From a virus, in the IMG/VR virus record IMGVR_UViG_3300047274_000027, positions 1 through 28,390 of that record: DNA of 28,390 nt. One strand, written 5' to 3'. The notes below the pieces were generated by a model. It did no database searches and was not told the DNA's origin. It worked only from the letters and a program-made list of their open reading frames with translations. The position numbers and the translations under genes were made by a program. Below are positions 23,575 to 28,390 of the stretch, piece after piece. The stretch's first letter is position 1; the number at the start of each line of letters is the position of its first letter.

Positions 23575-23884
23575 TGAACTAGCAGAACAGCTGCATACAA
23601 CGGCAGTTGCAAAAGGCTTTTGGCCAGAGGATGTAGACGATATCTTCATAACCAAGCAGCTTATGATGATCGTATCAGAAGCTGTAGAGGTCATGGAGGC
23701 TATTCGCAAGGACAAGGGTGAAGACCAGATCGCTGATGAAATGGCTGACATCCTTATCCGCACACTAGACCTATATGCAGGTCTGGTAGAGAATGGATAT
23801 ACTCGTGTATCACTTGACTACGCTCTCGACAAGAAGGCAAATATTAACAAAGACAGACCAGAAAGGCACGGTGTTCGCTTTTAA
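23567..23884 (+). CDS. mazG: MazG-like nucleotide pyrophosphohydrolase
   Basis: A 105-residue all-alpha NTP pyrophosphatase-type protein. It carries the MazG metal-binding pattern E38-x2-E41 (SEAVEVMEA) and E58-x2-D61 (DEMADILIR). Phage MazG proteins hydrolyse (d)NTPs and may adjust nucleotide or alarmone pools. Start choice: a longer frame opens at 23516, but GGAGG (near 23553-23557) lies at ideal distance from ATG 23567, giving an 8-base ATGTTTGA overlap with the polymerase stop, the same junction form as four other gene pairs. The stop overlaps recA by one base. Confidence 0.85.
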   Translation: MFDELAEQLHTTAVAKGFWPEDVDDIFITKQLMMIVSEAVEVMEAIRKDKGEDQIADEMADILIRTLDLYAGLVENGYTRVSLDYALDKKANINKDRPERHGVRF

Positions 23885-24894
23885 TGACAACTATTGAGGA
23901 GGCTCTAGCACAGCTAGATCCAAAGATTAGAAAGCGTTTGGGACCAGCTATCGGAATTAAAACAGAGTTTCAGCCGACACCAAGCCCAGGATTGAATCGT
24001 GCACTAGGTGGTGGATTTCCATACGGACGACAGGTTTTGCTATGGGGCAGCAAGTCTAGTGCAAAGTCTTCGCTTTGCTTGCAGACAATTGGCATGGCTC
24101 AAAAAGAAGGTAAGCTATGTGCCTGGATTGACGCTGAGATGTCTTATGACGAAGAGTGGGCTAGACGGCTTGGAGTGGACACTGAACAGCTAATTTATTC
24201 AGAGGCACGAAGCATTAACGACATGGTTGATGTTGGGGTGGCACTACTAAACGCAGGAGTTGACCTGATCGTCATTGACAGTATTAGTTCGCTTTTGCCA
24301 GCGGTATATTTTGAGAAAGACTCTGATGAACTAAAGGCTCTAGATCAAACTAAGCAGATTGGTGCAGAGTCTAAGGATCTCAAGCATGCATGGCTAATGC
24401 TAAACTATGCAAACAATAGAGAAAAGCCTGCACTAATTATTGCAATTTCTCAAGCACGAAATAACATCGGTGCAATGTACACTCAGTCAGTACCTACTGG
24501 AGGATTGACTACTCAATACATGTCTTCAACTATTGTTAAGCTATTCTCTTCCCCATCTGATGCTAATGCTATCAAGGCAAAGATTCCAGTTGGAGACAAG
24601 CTTATTGAGCAGAAGATTGGTCGTAAGGTCCGCTGGGAAGTTACCAACTCTAAGACATCTGCTCCTGGAGATTCTGCAGAGTATGACTTCTATTACAAGG
24701 GCGATTTGATTGGTGTAGACACCATTGCAGATCTAGTTGACACTGCAGAGATGCTTGGCTTTGTGACTAGAACTGGTGCCTGGTACATTCTTCCAGATGG
24801 CTCAAAGGTTCAGGGTAGAGATGCTTTTATTGTCAAAGTAAAAGAAGATTTAGAGCTACAGCAATCGCTGAAGGATAAGCTGGCAGATGTCTAA
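23884..24894 (+). CDS. recA: RecA-like recombinase
   Basis: A 336-residue strand-exchange ATPase. Family features: Walker A region GSKSSAKS (residues 55-62), CAWIDAEMSYDEEWARRLGV with the catalytic Glu, Walker B VDLIVIDSISSLLP (D132), and a downstream IAISQARNNIGAMYTQS region corresponding to the segment before DNA-binding loop L2. The second Gly of the P-loop (GKT in most RecA) is Ala60. It would pair ends and help form concatemers, along with the nucleases encoded downstream. ATG 23884 is coupled to mazG (TAATG). Confidence 0.92.
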   Translation: MTTIEEALAQLDPKIRKRLGPAIGIKTEFQPTPSPGLNRALGGGFPYGRQVLLWGSKSSAKSSLCLQTIGMAQKEGKLCAWIDAEMSYDEEWARRLGVDTEQLIYSEARSINDMVDVGVALLNAGVDLIVIDSISSLLPAVYFEKDSDELKALDQTKQIGAESKDLKHAWLMLNYANNREKPALIIAISQARNNIGAMYTQSVPTGGLTTQYMSSTIVKLFSSPSDANAIKAKIPVGDKLIEQKIGRKVRWEVTNSKTSAPGDSAEYDFYYKGDLIGVDTIADLVDTAEMLGFVTRTGAWYILPDGSKVQGRDAFIVKVKEDLELQQSLKDKLADV

Positions 24895-25072
24895 ATATAT
24901 AATTTATAGTGGGCAATTCCCTTGCCACACTTGCAAAAAGGTTGTAACAAGTCTAAGGTCTTATCCAGACACAAAAGAGCTTACATGGATGTGTCCAGAC
25001 AAGCACCTTAGCAAGGTAAGCCTTAATACAAAAAAGACTAAGAGAGATTATGAGCGAGAAGAGCGAGAGTAA
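24887..25072 (+). CDS. Small zinc-ribbon-like protein
   Basis: A 61-residue basic protein with CHTCKK near the N-terminus and WMCPDKH about 20 residues later, so Cys/His ligands for one metal ion are plausible; the C-terminus is Lys/Arg/Glu-rich. No named family was recognised. ATG 24887 overlaps the recA stop by 8 bases (ATGTCTAA), with AAGGA 11 bases upstream. It may be a nucleic-acid-binding accessory of the recombination operon, from position only. Confidence 0.55.
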   Translation: MSKYIIYSGQFPCHTCKKVVTSLRSYPDTKELTWMCPDKHLSKVSLNTKKTKRDYEREERE

Positions 25073-25337
25073 AAGACTTGGTGCCAAACAGCATAAGAAC
25101 TCTGGCAGAGGAACTCATAAAGGAGACGCTAGCTGGGAAAACTTTACGGTGGACTTTAAGGAAGTTGGGAAAAGCTTTACTCTTAATCGTGAAGTATGGG
25201 CCAAGTGCGTTACTGACGCTATTAGAAATAACAACGATCCTGCTATTGTTGTTGTACTTGGCGATAGTGGTGTCAAAGTACGACTGGCTATAATTGAACT
25301 TGGATTACTTGAACAACTGATAGGTGATGGTGTATAA
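25050..25337 (+). CDS. Small PD-(D/E)XK nuclease / resolvase-like protein
   Basis: A 95-residue protein with a compact PD-(D/E)XK pattern: a Ser/Gly-rich lead (NSGRGTHKGD, D26), then FTVDFKEVGKSFTL with D35-x-K37, a Trp-containing helix (NREVWAKCVTDAIRN) and a hydrophobic strand (PAIVVVLGD). This order, KGD, then strand with (D/E)xK, then KS(F/Y)(S/T)L, is that of small phage endonuclease/Holliday-junction-resolvase-like proteins. It is short even for that fold. ATG 25050 overlaps the upstream gene by 23 bases. Substrate is unknown; branched DNA is a guess supported by the recombination neighbours. Confidence 0.6.
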   Translation: MSEKSESKRLGAKQHKNSGRGTHKGDASWENFTVDFKEVGKSFTLNREVWAKCVTDAIRNNNDPAIVVVLGDSGVKVRLAIIELGLLEQLIGDGV

Positions 25338-25343
25338 TATAAT
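25333..25343 (+). promoter_or_regulatory. TATAATATAAT element at the start of the 25342/25345 gene
   Basis: Two overlapping TATAAT boxes (25333-25338 and 25338-25343), as at 15627. A TTGAAC -35 (25309-25314) lies 18 bases upstream. Six bases separate the first box from GTG 25345, and ATG 25342 is just before it, so a leaderless or nearly leaderless transcript is likely. No usable Shine-Dalgarno is seen. Confidence 0.6.
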
Positions 25344-25656
25344 GGTGGAAGCAACAAAAGACAAAACAACCTTAGAGATGATTAATGGTCTAGCAGAAAT
25401 TGCAGACTTCATGAATGATGAAGAGCTAACTGCTGCACTAACTACTATCGCTAAGTTAATTATTAAACCAGACATTCCATTGCAAGTGGCAACAGTAGAA
25501 ATTGTTAGACTACAGGCAATTGCAGCTAAGATGGCTTTTAAGGCCACCTGGCTGGTAAATGTCGATAAAGGGAACAGAGAGAAGAAGAACATTTACTTTA
25601 CTGCACATGAAGCTATCACGGATCTCGTGTCTGCTCTGAAGTATATTGTTCGATAA
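25342..25656 (+). CDS. Hypothetical helical protein
   Basis: A 104-residue protein, predicted mostly alpha-helical (LEMINGLAEIADFMNDEELT, VEIVRLQAIAAKMAFKATWL), family not recognised. The frame extends upstream to 25324, but those codons are the TATAATATAAT element, so the start is ATG 25342 or GTG 25345 (which would suit a leaderless mRNA). It sits between two nuclease genes; a role in recombination is possible but unsupported by motif. Confidence 0.6.
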   Translation: MVEATKDKTTLEMINGLAEIADFMNDEELTAALTTIAKLIIKPDIPLQVATVEIVRLQAIAAKMAFKATWLVNVDKGNREKKNIYFTAHEAITDLVSALKYIVR

Positions 25657-25662
25657 AACATT

Positions 25663-26463
25663 ATGGCTAAAAACTTACTACAACAGATTATGCTAAAAGG
25701 CGAAGGGTCATACAAGGCACCCACGTTTCTGAATACGCAAGATCTGATTGATAAAATTAACTATGGATATATCGCTAAGCGTGAGACTAAGTTTGCACAA
25801 AAGAAAACATTTGCTCCAAGCACAATTGCATATTCACATGGAGAGTGTCCCCGATACTGGTACCTAGCATTTGAGGGTGCCATGTTTGAGGATAATGCAG
25901 ATGCCTATGGCGGTGCCAACATGACTGCTGGAACTAAGTCGCACGAGCGTATCCAGCAGGCCATGGCCGATGCAGGAATCCTAAAGGATGCCGAGTTTAA
26001 GGTTGTGTCTAACGATCCTCCAATTTTTGGTTATGGTGACGTTATTCTCGATTGGGCAGGAGAAGATCTGCTCGGTGAAATCAAGACAATGCCAAGTGAA
26101 GGTTTTGAGTATCGCAAGGCAAGTGGTAAGCCAAAGCTTGGGCACTTGGTGCAGCTGCTTATCTATATGAAGATTCTAAACAAGACAAAGGCAGTCTTGA
26201 TTTATGAAAACAAAAATAATCATGACCTACTGATTATCCCAGTAGAGATTAATGATTACAAAGTCAGGTGGGTAAACCAGACATTCGAATGGATGCGTTC
26301 GGTACGAAAAGCTTGGGAAGAGAAGAAGCTTCCTGAGAAAAACTATCGTTCCAATTCAAAGATTTGCAAGACATGTCCTCTAAGTAAGACGTGTGCTGAA
26401 GCTGGCAAGGGAGATATTAAGATTAATTCTCTGGAGCCATTAGATGAAGCACAAGCACTGTGA
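25663..26463 (+). CDS. Cas4/RecB-like PD-(D/E)XK exonuclease with 4Fe-4S cysteines
   Basis: A 266-residue nuclease that probably processes DNA ends for recombination. Features in order: GECPRYW with C62; FGYGDVIL with D126; LLGEIKT with E139 and K141 (the D...ExK metal-binding core); a Gln-containing helix HLVQLLIYMK; and C-terminal C235-x2-C238-x5-C244. One N-terminal and three C-terminal cysteines form the Cas4/AddB-type iron-sulphur arrangement. There is no CRISPR array or other cas gene here, so this is a recombination nuclease rather than part of an adaptation module. Start ATG 25663, six bases after the previous stop, without a clear Shine-Dalgarno. Confidence 0.87.
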   Translation: MAKNLLQQIMLKGEGSYKAPTFLNTQDLIDKINYGYIAKRETKFAQKKTFAPSTIAYSHGECPRYWYLAFEGAMFEDNADAYGGANMTAGTKSHERIQQAMADAGILKDAEFKVVSNDPPIFGYGDVILDWAGEDLLGEIKTMPSEGFEYRKASGKPKLGHLVQLLIYMKILNKTKAVLIYENKNNHDLLIIPVEINDYKVRWVNQTFEWMRSVRKAWEEKKLPEKNYRSNSKICKTCPLSKTCAEAGKGDIKINSLEPLDEAQAL

Positions 26464-26737
26464 GTGGTGTGACACTCAGTTTTTAGCTAAAGTATCTTAT
26501 CAGATATATTGTTCTGTAGAGTGTAGAGAGTTTGCTACCAAAGAAAAGATTTCAGAAAGATATGCGATTGCTCGCAGATCTAGACTATCTAAGAAAAATA
26601 GAACCTGTAAATCTTGCGGTAGCAGACTCTCTGTCTATAATGATGACGAGCTTTGTCAAGGTTGTATTATTAATCCAAAAGACGTTAAGAAAGCCCTGAA
26701 AGAAATTAAGGATATCATTAATGAAAAAGATAGTTAA
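26444..26737 (+). CDS. Double zinc-finger small protein
   Basis: A 97-residue basic protein with two cysteine clusters: CEWC...YCSVEC near the N-terminus and CKSCGSRL...LCQGC in the middle, each able to bind a zinc ion, followed by a charged helix (DVKKALKEIKDIINEK). ATG 26444 follows GGAG by 7 bases and overlaps the Cas4-like gene by 20. It is probably nucleic-acid binding; the target is unknown. Confidence 0.65.
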   Translation: MKHKHCEWCDTQFLAKVSYQIYCSVECREFATKEKISERYAIARRSRLSKKNRTCKSCGSRLSVYNDDELCQGCIINPKDVKKALKEIKDIINEKDS

Positions 26738-27296
26738 TCTTTACACTGGACCAAGATCAATCATGGCTATTGATGCAAGTACAAACAGTCTTGCTTTTGC
26801 AATTTTCATTGATGAAAAGCTTTACCGTTTTGGAAAAATAAATTTTTCTGGTGCCACAACATACGACAAGGTCATTGATGCATGCAAGAAGACCGCTGCA
26901 TTTATGAAGCATTATAGTGTAGATGCAATTGTCATTGAGCATACAGTCTTTATGAATAGCCCAAAGACTGCAGCCGACCTTGCCTTGGTTCAAGGTTCGC
27001 TATTGGGTGCAGCTGGAGTTTCTGGGGTAAGTAATGTTAGATCAGTTGCACCTATCACGTGGCAAAATTTTATTGGGAATAAAAAGTTTTCAAAAGAGGA
27101 AAAGTTAAAGATTAGGCACGAACATCCTGGAAAGTCAGAGTCTTGGTATAAAAATTATGAAAGACAAGAAAGAAAGAATAAAACTATTAATTATATTGAT
27201 ATTCAATATGATAGGCTGGTTAGTGACAACGATGTCGCTGATGCAATTGGCATCGGTCATTATGCAATAAACAACTGGGATAAGTTGACAAGGTAG
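26721..27296 (+). CDS. RuvC-like Holliday junction resolvase
   Basis: A 191-residue RNase H-fold nuclease. Acidic residues appear in RuvC order: D18 in IMAIDASTNSLAFAIF, E73 in VDAIVIEHTVFMN, and D169/D171/D174 in DNDVADAIGIGHYA. The middle also has RuvC-like NSPKTAADLALVQGSLLGAA. An extra charged stretch (about residues 120-155; FSKEEKLKIRHEHPG, ERQERKNK) precedes the last motif. It would cut four-way or branched DNA before packaging. ATG 26721 overlaps the zinc-finger gene by 17 bases. Confidence 0.87.
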   Translation: MKKIVNLYTGPRSIMAIDASTNSLAFAIFIDEKLYRFGKINFSGATTYDKVIDACKKTAAFMKHYSVDAIVIEHTVFMNSPKTAADLALVQGSLLGAAGVSGVSNVRSVAPITWQNFIGNKKFSKEEKLKIRHEHPGKSESWYKNYERQERKNKTINYIDIQYDRLVSDNDVADAIGIGHYAINNWDKLTR

Positions 27297-27313
27297 GCTA
27301 TGTCTGGTAAACT
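27285..27313 (+). promoter_or_regulatory. Candidate promoter TTGACA-N17-TAAACT with extended -10
   Basis: TTGACA (27285-27290), 17-base spacer ending TGG (27305-27307), then TAAACT (27308-27313). The start would be near 27320, inside the first codons of the HTH gene, so it would serve the downstream genes or an internal ATG at 27351. It shares TTGACAAGG and the TGG extension with the 16540 promoter. Confidence 0.45.
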
Positions 27314-27455
27314 ATATACAAGCGAACTGTGGCTACGTAAGCGGTATCATATGGATAAACGCACTCCAGAACAAATTGCGAAAGAGTGTGGAGTAAGCGT
27401 TGAAACCATTTATGTTTACTTGGCAAAGTTTGGATTAAGAAAGTCAAAACGATGA
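27300..27455 (+). CDS. Short helix-turn-helix protein
   Basis: A 51-residue protein. TPEQIAKECGVSVETIYVYLAK is a clear helix-turn-helix of the resolvase/sigma region 4 type, followed by a basic end (LRKSKR). A GGTAGG lies just upstream of ATG 27300. An in-frame ATG at 27351 would give a 34-residue form from the promoter at 27285. The stop overlaps the next ATG by four bases (ATGA). It may be a small transcription regulator; target unknown. Confidence 0.65.
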   Translation: MSGKLYTSELWLRKRYHMDKRTPEQIAKECGVSVETIYVYLAKFGLRKSKR

Positions 27456-27625
27456 GAATACTGAAACACTTTGCTTGGGTTGCCAAGGGAATGGTGCTTA
27501 GGCTATTCTGCAATCACTCAAATACTCGTACAGCATCATGTCCTGTCACAATGTACACTTACACTACGTGCAACAATTGTGGCAAGAGGCTTGCAATCGT
27601 AAGAACGGAAGATTTAAATGGCTAG
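27452..27625 (+). CDS. Small zinc-ribbon-like protein
   Basis: A 57-residue protein with CNH, ASCP and TCNNCGKR, a plausible single-zinc ribbon, after a hydrophobic/basic N-terminal helix (LKHFAWVAKGMVLRLF). It is coupled at both ends: ATGA with the HTH gene and an 8-base ATGGCTAG with the next gene, which supports it being real. Function unknown. Confidence 0.55.
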   Translation: MRILKHFAWVAKGMVLRLFCNHSNTRTASCPVTMYTYTTCNNCGKRLAIVRTEDLNG

Positions 27626-27905
27626 GCGTAAAAAAGAAGCTGAAGTTGCACCATCGCACTTTGTTACTACCCCATATATGGAGGTCAACGGTTTCCCGAT
27701 TCAAAAGGGTGATATTATCAAGATCCAAGGGGAATACGGATCAAAGTTTAAGTTTGTTGGAGTAACTGAGAATACTCTAACTGGTGCAACCTGGGTAGAC
27801 TGCTTCCAGATTATTGGCACAGTTCCATCGGTATTCAGATCTTTTAAGGAAGACCGTGTAAAGCGTATTCCTAAGAGAGGAAAGCGAGCAAAGCGTGTCG
27901 TTTGA
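27618..27905 (+). CDS. Basic SH3-like small protein
   Basis: A 95-residue protein with basic ends (MARRKKEAE and KRIPKRGKRAKRVV) and a beta-type core (DIIKIQGEYGSKFKFVGVTE, GATWVDCFQIIG) resembling small SH3/KOW-like barrels found in many actinobacteriophages. It probably binds nucleic acid; no function was recognised. GGAAGA precedes ATG 27618, which overlaps the upstream stop by 8 bases. Confidence 0.6.
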   Translation: MARRKKEAEVAPSHFVTTPYMEVNGFPIQKGDIIKIQGEYGSKFKFVGVTENTLTGATWVDCFQIIGTVPSVFRSFKEDRVKRIPKRGKRAKRVV

Positions 27906-28390
27906 AGACTTGACAATCGAGCACCTTGACGAAGTAAACAAGGTTGTAGAAAAATATTTAGCAGGTAATGAGCCTACTCAAATTTCTAAAGATCTGGCTA
28001 TGCCACGTCAAAAGGTTGTGGCCTATATTAACGAGTGGCGAGCAATGGCTGCAGACAACGCTGCAATTCGTGCTCGTGCAAAAGAGGCATTGGTTGGTGC
28101 AGACACCCACTACACTAAGCTGATTCAGAAGGCTTATGAGGTTATTGATGATGCAACCACAACCGCAAACCTTAACGCTAAGACGGCAGGCATCAAGTTG
28201 GTCATGGACCTTGAGTCTAAGCGTATTGACATGCTGCAAAAGGCTGGTCTACTAGAGAACAAAGAGCTTGCAGAAGAGATGATTGAGATTGAGCGTAAGC
28301 AAGAGCTATTGGTATCAATCTTGAAAGACATCGCATCTGAGCATCCAGAGATTCGTGACAAGATTATGCGTAGGCTTTCAGACGTTGCGA
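27895..28390 (+). CDS. Probable terminase small subunit (3' truncated by the window edge)
   Basis: At least 165 residues, continuing past the window. The N-terminus has a helix-turn-helix (YLAGNEPTQISKDLAMPRQK, then VVAYINEWR), followed by long helices (KRIDMLQKAGLLENKELAEE, MIEIERKQELLVSILKDIAS) as in phage small terminase proteins, which bind the packaging site and oligomerise. GTG start at 27895 overlaps the previous gene by 11 bases; GAGAGGA lies 13 bases upstream, rather far. A generic HTH DNA-binding protein is the alternative; finding a large terminase gene next would settle it. Confidence 0.6.
   Translation, partial: MSFEDLTIEHLDEVNKVVEKYLAGNEPTQISKDLAMPRQKVVAYINEWRAMAADNAAIRARAKEALVGADTHYTKLIQKAYEVIDDATTTANLNAKTAGIKLVMDLESKRIDMLQKAGLLENKELAEEMIEIERKQELLVSILKDIASEHPEIRDKIMRRLSDVA

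What the first reader, a model, noticed from the sequence alone, without database searches (positions are those of the whole stretch)
25050..27296. Three different nuclease folds beside RecA
A 95-residue PD-(D/E)XK protein, a Cas4-like 4Fe-4S exonuclease and a RuvC-like resolvase lie within 2.3 kb after RecA, interleaved with zinc-finger and helical small proteins. It looks like a self-contained end-processing and branch-resolving set. The two possible junction enzymes (small PD-(D/E)XK and RuvC-like) suggest a split of labour not explained by known phage pathways.
Basis: partly seen in the sequence, partly recalled or inferred. Interest (0 to 1): 0.5.

Follow-up and report, generated by a model that had tools for sequence, protein, structure and literature searches.

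The report
Conserved actinophage recombination nuclease block
A virus fragment related to phages of Actinobacteria carries, next to its RecA gene, the same row of DNA-cutting and DNA-recombining genes already annotated in sequenced Streptomyces, Rhodococcus and Gordonia phages; the set is ordinary for that group, but why these phages keep two different junction-cutting enzymes seems untested.

Summary
The genes are real and at the stated coordinates, but they are a known, annotated block. The 95-residue protein matches PHROG 2002 (Holliday junction resolvase), the 266-residue one PHROG 1706 (Cas4-like), the 191-residue one PHROG 159 (RuvC-like). Among related loci, the 129 of 188 distinct ones with at least 6 kb downstream all keep both Cas4 and RuvC; 9 of 10 phage records opened keep the order RecA, small resolvase, Cas4, RuvC. 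[quoted passage not shown]

"Three different folds" is wrong: Cas4 is itself PD-(D/E)XK, so at most two.

Most likely function: end resection, RecA strand exchange and junction cleavage in recombination-linked replication, with a broad phage-type RuvC clearing branches before packaging. The split of labour is untested. New member of a known kind; low interest with one fair open question.

The parts
23884..24894 (+). RecA/UvsX-like recombinase (336 aa)
   Evidence: Pfam RecA 5.5e-32; PHROG 97 UvsX-like 1.7e-55; upstream of the small resolvase in 143 of 143 distinct loci with room
24887..25072 (+). 61-aa zinc-ribbon-like protein (C13, C16, C36, H40)
   Evidence: C13/C16/C36/H40 in 144 of 144 distinct sequences; PHROG 10952, unknown function, 4.1e-5; found in 130 of 143 distinct loci with room
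25050..25337 (+). small putative Hjc-type junction nuclease, 95 aa; E3, D26, D35, K37
   Evidence: PHROG 2002 Holliday junction resolvase 9.7e-19; catalytic pattern constant in 176 distinct domains; fold not resolved
25342..25656 (+). 104-aa small protein of unknown function (listed as 110 aa from GTG 25324; I read it from ATG 25342 because the PHROG match starts near there)
Evidence: PHROG 9818, unknown function, 5.7e-24; found in 123 of 129 distinct loci with room; alignment A6.
25663..26463 (+). Cas4/RecB-like putative 4Fe-4S exonuclease, 266 aa; C62, C235, C238, C244; D126, E139, K141, Q164
   Evidence: PHROG 1706 7.9e-46; TIGR00372 cas4 2.2e-10, below its cut-off; residue counts in 177 distinct sequences
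26444..26737 (+). 97-aa protein with two four-Cys groups, zinc-finger-like
   Evidence: PHROG 10853, unknown function, 4.5e-12; weak resemblance to HNH (7.6e-5) and NinG (0.043) zinc fingers; six Cys 170 of 170, C23 168, C27 169 of 170
26721..27296 (+). phage-type RuvC-like resolvase, 191 aa; D18, E73, D171, D174; R148, R151, K152
   Evidence: PHROG 159 2.9e-18; AlphaFold pLDDT 93.2, Foldseek 2.9e-9 to T. thermophilus RuvC; catalytic acids in 190 of 190; bIL67 triad aligned
27300..27455 (+). 51-aa helix-turn-helix protein following RuvC
   Evidence: PHROG 9759 DNA binding protein 5.8e-11; weak HTH profiles
27895..28389 (+). PHROG 9507 protein, cut by the end of the window; its Samisti12 homologue precedes the large terminase gene
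   Evidence: PHROG 9507 1.6e-45, Samisti12 homologue 4.5e-96; Samisti12 gene order

Best explanation
This is the recombination and branch-processing block of a tailed phage related to Stanwilliamsviridae and other actinophages. Inferred pathway: the Cas4-like exonuclease resects DNA ends, RecA pairs the single strand with a homologue (repair and recombination-linked replication), and the resulting junctions are cut. The RuvC-like protein is most likely a broad branch-cutting enzyme of the Lactococcus phage bIL67 type that clears remaining forks and junctions before packaging. The 95-aa protein is most likely a second, Hjc-type junction nuclease working close to RecA. Shown here: the genes, their constant order among relatives, and conserved catalytic residues. 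Inferred: every biochemical activity and the order of steps.
For: Family assignments. Cas4 and RuvC downstream in 129 of 129 distinct loci with at least 6 kb of room, RecA upstream in 143 of 143 with 2.5 kb, DnaE polymerase in 118 of 118 with 5 kb (188 distinct loci held). Same order in Annadreamy, Samisti12, Trina, NiceHouse, Kabocha, GMA6, Cantare, Weasels2 and Dorin. RuvC model pLDDT 93.2; Foldseek matches to RuvC, the bIL67 enzyme 4ktw at 3.2e-6 and 3.9e-6. R148, R151 and K152 are kept in 183, 187 and 186 of 190 distinct sequences and align with bIL67 R121, R124 and K125 in three MAFFT modes and in hhalign (94.8% probability, single comparison); the bIL67 paper reports severe defects in fork and junction cleavage on changing these residues and no equivalents of R121/R124 in E. 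coli or Thermus RuvC (passages). Eight BE1 phages have terminal repeats of 10.7-11.5 kb (whole text), which to my knowledge goes with concatemer packaging; four to six genes lie between RuvC and the large terminase gene in five named phages.
Against: I found no activity data for any member. The 95-aa protein has no confident structure and no detected link to archaeal Hjc, so 'resolvase' rests on the PHROG label and the residue pattern. In Gordonia phages Kabocha and GMA6 RuvC is followed by a ParB-like gene, in Brevibacterium phage Cantare by an HNH and then a ParB-like gene, not by terminase in the stretch shown, and these three RuvCs lack the full R/R/K triad: a general packaging link is weakened. 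Their Cas4-like proteins have Phe at C235.
Confidence: 0.72

Rival explanations
1. The 95-aa protein is a structure-specific nuclease or nickase of another kind (for example a RecA-coupled flap or D-loop nuclease), not a four-way-junction resolvase; RuvC alone resolves junctions.
For: No profile or structural link to Hjc found; it is very short; it sits on the RecA side of the block, not beside RuvC.
Against: PHROG 2002 label; E - D - (D/E)xK pattern in the same order as in Pfu Hjc (E9, D33, E46, K48) and as Glu10, Asp40, Glu53, Lys55 of the phage enzyme Hjc_15-6 (passages).
Confidence: 0.3
2. The two junction enzymes are redundant: both resolve the same intermediates and are kept as insurance or because they differ only in sequence preference.
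For: Both present together with conserved catalytic residues; sequence-dependent cutting is known for RuvC enzymes (recalled).
Against: Retention of both in each of the 129 distinct loci that could be scored is easier to explain by distinct roles; this is an argument, not a test.
Confidence: 0.25
3. The Cas4-like and small nucleases degrade host DNA or counter host defence instead of serving phage recombination.
For: Genes annotated Cas4-like or RecB-like also occur outside this group (weak hits at E up to 1 in Rhizobium, Thermus, Moorella and Alteromonas phages and Betalipothrixvirus); host-chromosome degradation by phage fork cleavage is mentioned in the bIL67 paper.
Against: Constant position among DnaE polymerase, RecA and resolvase genes in related loci.
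Confidence: 0.1

Closest known systems
RecA - Holliday junction resolvase - Cas4 - RuvC block of Stanwilliamsviridae (Streptomyces phages Samisti12, Annadreamy)
   Same: Same genes, order and strand, including the 61-, 104- and 97-aa companions
   Different: 34-46% protein identity for the three nucleases (alignments A1, A4, A5); extra small genes in places
Rhodococcus phages Trina, NiceHouse, Weasels2, Dorin (and Nova53)
   Same: RecA, resolvase, small protein, Cas4-like, RuvC-like in order in the four opened (in Weasels2 the Cas4-like gene is annotated hypothetical); [quoted passage not shown]
   Different: The 61-aa and 97-aa genes were not detected in Trina and NiceHouse
Gordonia Bendigovirus (Kabocha, GMA6) and Brevibacterium phage Cantare
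   Same: DnaE, RecA, PHROG 2002, Cas4-like and RuvC-like genes in the same order (PHROG matches for most of them)
   Different: The 61-, 104- and 97-aa genes not detected; Phe at one cluster Cys of the Cas4-like protein; ParB-like gene after RuvC
Lactococcus phage bIL67 RuvC (PDB 4ktw)
   Same: RuvC fold; R/R/K triad aligned
   Different: bIL67 has its last two acids four apart (D145, D149); the window has D171 and D174, while 13 of 190 relatives have only the bIL67-like pattern
Hjc_15-6 of Thermus phage Tth15-6, and archaeal Hjc
   Same: Glu - Asp - (D/E)xK residues in the same order
   Different: No detected profile similarity to archaeal Hjc; Hjc_15-6 itself was not compared; the window protein has Asp where Hjc has Glu before xK

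Membership tests
PHROG 2002 (phage Holliday junction resolvase) | Profile match over most of the protein | tested here: met
   9.7e-19, residues 2-91 on 22-114 of 130; 26 of 26 members of A10, window included, match
Hjc-type PD-(D/E)XK resolvases | Catalytic E - D - (D/E)xK residues | tested here: met
   E3 174 of 176 (2 gaps), D26 176, D/E35 176, K37 176 of 176
[quoted passage not shown]
   Model pLDDT 54.9; no PDB match at E <= 0.001; best VIA Z 2.9
Hjc-type PD-(D/E)XK resolvases | Pfam Hjc (PF01870) match | tested here: not met
   No match at E <= 10; profile comparison with four archaeal Hjc/Hje sequences, probability 0.3%
Hjc-type PD-(D/E)XK resolvases | Cleaves four-way junctions | not testable with these tools
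   Needs purified protein
Cas4-like 4Fe-4S exonucleases | Four cluster Cys and RecB-type D, ExK, Q residues | tested here: met
   C62 177, C235 174, C238 177, C244 175 of 177; D126, E139, K141, Q164 177 of 177; all present in the window protein
CRISPR Cas4 proper (TIGR00372) | Score above the curated cut-off | tested here: not met
   40.7 bits against 65
CRISPR Cas4 proper (TIGR00372) | Neighbouring cas1/cas2 | tested here: not met
   No cas1/cas2 family listed for the ten proteins scanned between 23.6 and 27.9 kb
RuvC resolvases | RNase H-like RuvC fold | tested here: met
   pLDDT 93.2; Foldseek 2.9e-9 to 4ld0, probability 1.00
RuvC resolvases | Four catalytic acids | tested here: met
   D18, E73, D174 190 of 190; Asp at 170 or 171 in 190 of 190
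Cellular RuvC equivalog (TIGR00228) | Score above the curated cut-off | tested here: not met
   12.7 bits against 100.65
Phage-type (bIL67) RuvC | R121/R124/K125 equivalents | tested here: met
   R148, R151, K152 aligned to them in three MAFFT modes and hhalign; kept in 183, 187, 186 of 190. In one search the supporting piece alone is weak (7.7 bits) and overlaps another placement.
Stanwilliamsviridae | Whole-genome gene sharing | not tested
   The record is a 28.4 kb fragment; only the gene block was compared

The most novel reading that the evidence does not exclude
A whole group of actinophages runs an obligatory two-resolvase system: a minimal Hjc-type nuclease tied to RecA resolves recombination junctions during replication, while a promiscuous RuvC-type enzyme debranches the concatemer for packaging. 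Neither replaces the other, which would explain why both are kept in each distinct locus that could be scored.
Probability: 0.3. Interest if true: 0.45.

Novelty: new member of a known kind. Interest (0 to 1): 0.2.

Why it matters
If the two resolvases do divide recombination and packaging, this would be a clean natural system for asking why some viruses need two junction enzymes when T4 and T7 are usually described with one (recalled). Streptomyces phages such as Samisti12 make it testable in laboratory strains.

Tried and rejected
Structure of the 95-aa protein: AlphaFold on alignment A2 (window plus 22 close relatives) gave pLDDT 54.9; Foldseek and VIA-align on that model gave nothing usable. 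I recognised no PD-(D/E)XK chain among the rows; with such a model that says nothing.

Routes to Hjc by sequence: PDB sequences, Pfam, NCBIfam, PF01870 and hhalign gave no link. Two single-member Pfam hits (FokI cleavage domain 0.0024, DUF5640 0.0022, each 1 of 21) were treated as noise.

Distant relatives: scans of viral contigs with the Cantare and NiceHouse proteins found none; the alignment with Gordonia members was too variable to search; alignment A1 returned mostly loci already held; alignment A9 reached more distant ones.

Idea that the 104-aa protein is a recombination mediator like T4 UvsY: not pursued; the PDB profile search gave a designed helical bundle at 1.2e-6 and three matches at 0.026 to 0.9.

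Idea that some Rhodococcus phages lack RuvC (5 of 9 by tblastn): not so for Weasels2 and Dorin, the two opened for this, which have an annotated RuvC-like gene.

Counts. The first count, 107 of 119 for RuvC within 3.5 kb, looked like losses; the 12 misses all have RuvC further away, with extra sequence between the small resolvase and the 104-aa gene. The 179 of 179 counts some contigs twice. One search merges loci with identical DNA in a 180-base stretch of the resolvase gene and is the count I rely on: 274 loci, 188 distinct, scored only where the stretch was long enough, with no distance limit inside the locus. It includes the named-phage loci L158-L164; Weasels2, Dorin and the Bacillus phage were opened later and are not in it. 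Window copies L001 and L222 were dropped. The loci were all fetched by similarity to this block's own resolvases, so the counts describe kin, not phages in general.

Literature: 9 of 10 searches used. No paper held 'phage' with 'two Holliday junction resolvases' or 'Streptomyces phage' with 'RuvC-like resolvase'; some searches gave listings in which I opened only PMC13325033 and PMC8782336 (passages; the latter concerns other phages) and PMC3864405 (passages). The library holds open-licence papers only.
Full report
What is there. The window is a 28,390-base virus record. On the + strand it codes for tape measure and tail proteins, then a DnaB-type helicase, primase, single-strand binding protein, DnaE-type polymerase, MazG-like protein and RecA. 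After RecA (23884-24894) follow a 61-aa Cys-rich protein, the 95-aa protein (25050-25337), a small protein (104 aa from ATG 25342; 110 aa if GTG 25324 is used), the Cas4-like protein (25663-26463), a 97-aa eight-Cys protein and the RuvC-like protein (26721-27296).

What the genes are. PHROG profiles name the three nucleases directly: Holliday junction resolvase (9.7e-19), CRISPR/Cas-associated, i.e. Cas4-like (7.9e-46), and RuvC-like resolvase (2.9e-18). The title's 'three different folds' is not right: Cas4 belongs to the PD-(D/E)XK superfamily (established knowledge), so if the small protein is also PD-(D/E)XK there are two folds.

The small protein. Across 176 distinct domains, the most distant at 28% identity to the window, D26 and K37 never change, D35 is D or E, E3 is Glu in all but two with a gap there, and N17, S18, G19 and K24 are present in 175. 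That is the E - D - (D/E)xK pattern of Hjc enzymes; for the phage enzyme Hjc_15-6 the active-site residues given are Glu10, Asp40, Glu53 and Lys55 (PMC8805305, passages). The refutation by fold is undecided: pLDDT 54.9, no Foldseek match at E <= 0.001, no detected profile link to archaeal Hjc. All 26 members of alignment A10 match PHROG 2002, but the functional label of that family is an annotation, not a test.

The RuvC-like protein. The model is confident (pLDDT 93.2) and its top 14 Foldseek hits are RuvC structures (4ld0 2.9e-9; bIL67 RuvC 4ktw about 3e-6). D18, E73 and D174 are invariant in 190 distinct sequences, and an Asp stands at 170 or 171 in all 190; 13 have it only at 170, like D145 of bIL67 RuvC. 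R148, R151 and K152, kept in 183, 187 and 186 of 190, align with R121, R124 and K125 of bIL67 RuvC in three MAFFT modes and in hhalign (94.8%); in the earlier profile search the piece carrying this alignment was weak by itself (7.7 bits). The bIL67 paper reports severe defects in fork and junction cleavage when these residues are changed to alanine (R121A keeping some activity in UV repair), says that R121 and R124 have no equivalents in E. coli or Thermus RuvC while K125 does, and speaks of a versatile debranching endonuclease (PMC3864405, passages). This favours a broad branch-cutting role here.

The Cas4-like protein. C62, C235, C238 and C244 are kept in 177, 174, 177 and 175 of 177 distinct sequences, and D126, E139, K141 and Q164 in 177 of 177; the exceptions at C235 are the Kabocha, GMA6 and Cantare proteins. 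It scores 40.7 bits on the CRISPR cas4 model, below the 65-bit cut-off: Cas4-like, not CRISPR Cas4.

How widespread. tblastn in 50,697 phage records (E <= 1e-3) finds the small protein in 151 (127 Streptomyces, 13 Gordonia, 9 Rhodococcus, 2 Brevibacterium), RuvC in 133 (127 Streptomyces, 5 Rhodococcus, 1 'Bacteriophage sp.') and Cas4 in 137 (127 Streptomyces, 9 Rhodococcus, 1 Bacillus). The main host counts agree between the three lists, but I did not match them record by record, and some phages appear under two accessions. I opened ten records. Nine (Annadreamy, Samisti12, Trina, NiceHouse, Kabocha, GMA6, Cantare, Weasels2, Dorin) keep RecA, the small resolvase, Cas4 and RuvC in order (the first seven also by profile search; several Gordonia and Brevibacterium proteins by PHROG). 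In some of them genes are annotated only as hypothetical, and in GMA6 the resolvase frame is not annotated. The tenth, Bacillus phage KLEB27-3, reached by a weak RuvC match (1e-3), has a RuvC gene, a Cas4-family gene about 2.7 kb further on the other strand and a PD-(D/E)XK gene upstream, with no RecA annotated in the 12.4 kb shown.

In the IMG/VR and named loci held, 274 loci with the small resolvase reduce to 188 with distinct resolvase DNA. With at least 6 kb downstream, Cas4 and RuvC are found in 129 of 129; with 2.5 kb upstream, RecA in 143 of 143; with 5 kb upstream, the polymerase in 118 of 118. The 104-aa protein is found in 123 of 129, the 97-aa in 123 of 129, the 61-aa in 130 of 143. 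These are kin of the window by selection; the result shows a constant block in this phage group, not that the pairing is general.

How it probably works. Inferred from families: Cas4-like resection, RecA strand exchange, junction cleavage, and a phage-type RuvC removing leftover branches before packaging. The eight BE1 phages described in PMC5764925 have direct terminal repeats of 10.7-11.5 kb (whole text), and in Samisti12, Trina, NiceHouse, Weasels2 and Dorin four to six genes lie between RuvC and the large terminase gene. Against a general packaging link, in Kabocha and GMA6 a ParB-like gene follows RuvC, in Cantare an HNH gene and then a ParB-like gene, and these three RuvCs lack the full R/R/K triad. 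The separate roles of the two junction enzymes are a hypothesis without data.

Known or new. [quoted passage not shown] My searches (open-licence library, mostly listings seen) turned up no paper on why two resolvases are kept. Verdict: an ordinary block of a known phage group, with one reasonable open question.

Changes on checking. The habitat word 'freshwater' was removed because no call supports it, the count of genes between RuvC and terminase was reworded, and the bIL67 triad was re-aligned.

Noticed in passing
L135:504-3834, L077:10274-12965, L243:10274-12899 and others: The junction between the small resolvase and the 104-aa gene is an insertion spot in relatives: 63 of 254 loci (redundant) carry 700 bp or more there, up to 3.4 kb. 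Of ten inserted proteins scanned with Pfam, two match RNase_H_2/RNase_T exonucleases (about 6e-12), one weakly a cupin (0.0065) and seven nothing; several of the unmatched look to me like 2OG-Fe(II) oxygenases (impression only). The window has no insert.
   Followed up: partly
L163:6998-7258 (Gordonia phage GMA6): The small resolvase frame is open in GMA6 but not annotated as a gene: it overlaps the end of the recombinase gene and the start of Orf89.
   Followed up: no
window 26721-27296 and relatives: Two placements of the third RuvC acid coexist in one family: Asp at 171 (three before D174, as in bacterial RuvC as I recall it) in 177 of 190, and Asp only at 170 (four before, as in bIL67 RuvC) in 13 of 190, among them Samisti12 and Trina.
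   Followed up: partly
L162, L163, L164 Cas4-like proteins: Kabocha, GMA6 and Cantare versions have Phe in place of one of the four putative cluster Cys, so they may lack or alter the 4Fe-4S cluster.
   Followed up: no
window 27895-28389: PHROG 9507 protein of unknown function; its homologue directly precedes the large terminase gene in Samisti12; possibly a small terminase subunit.
   Followed up: no
window 27618-27905: DUF7246 protein (Pfam 4.8e-12) of unknown function downstream of the block.
   Followed up: no
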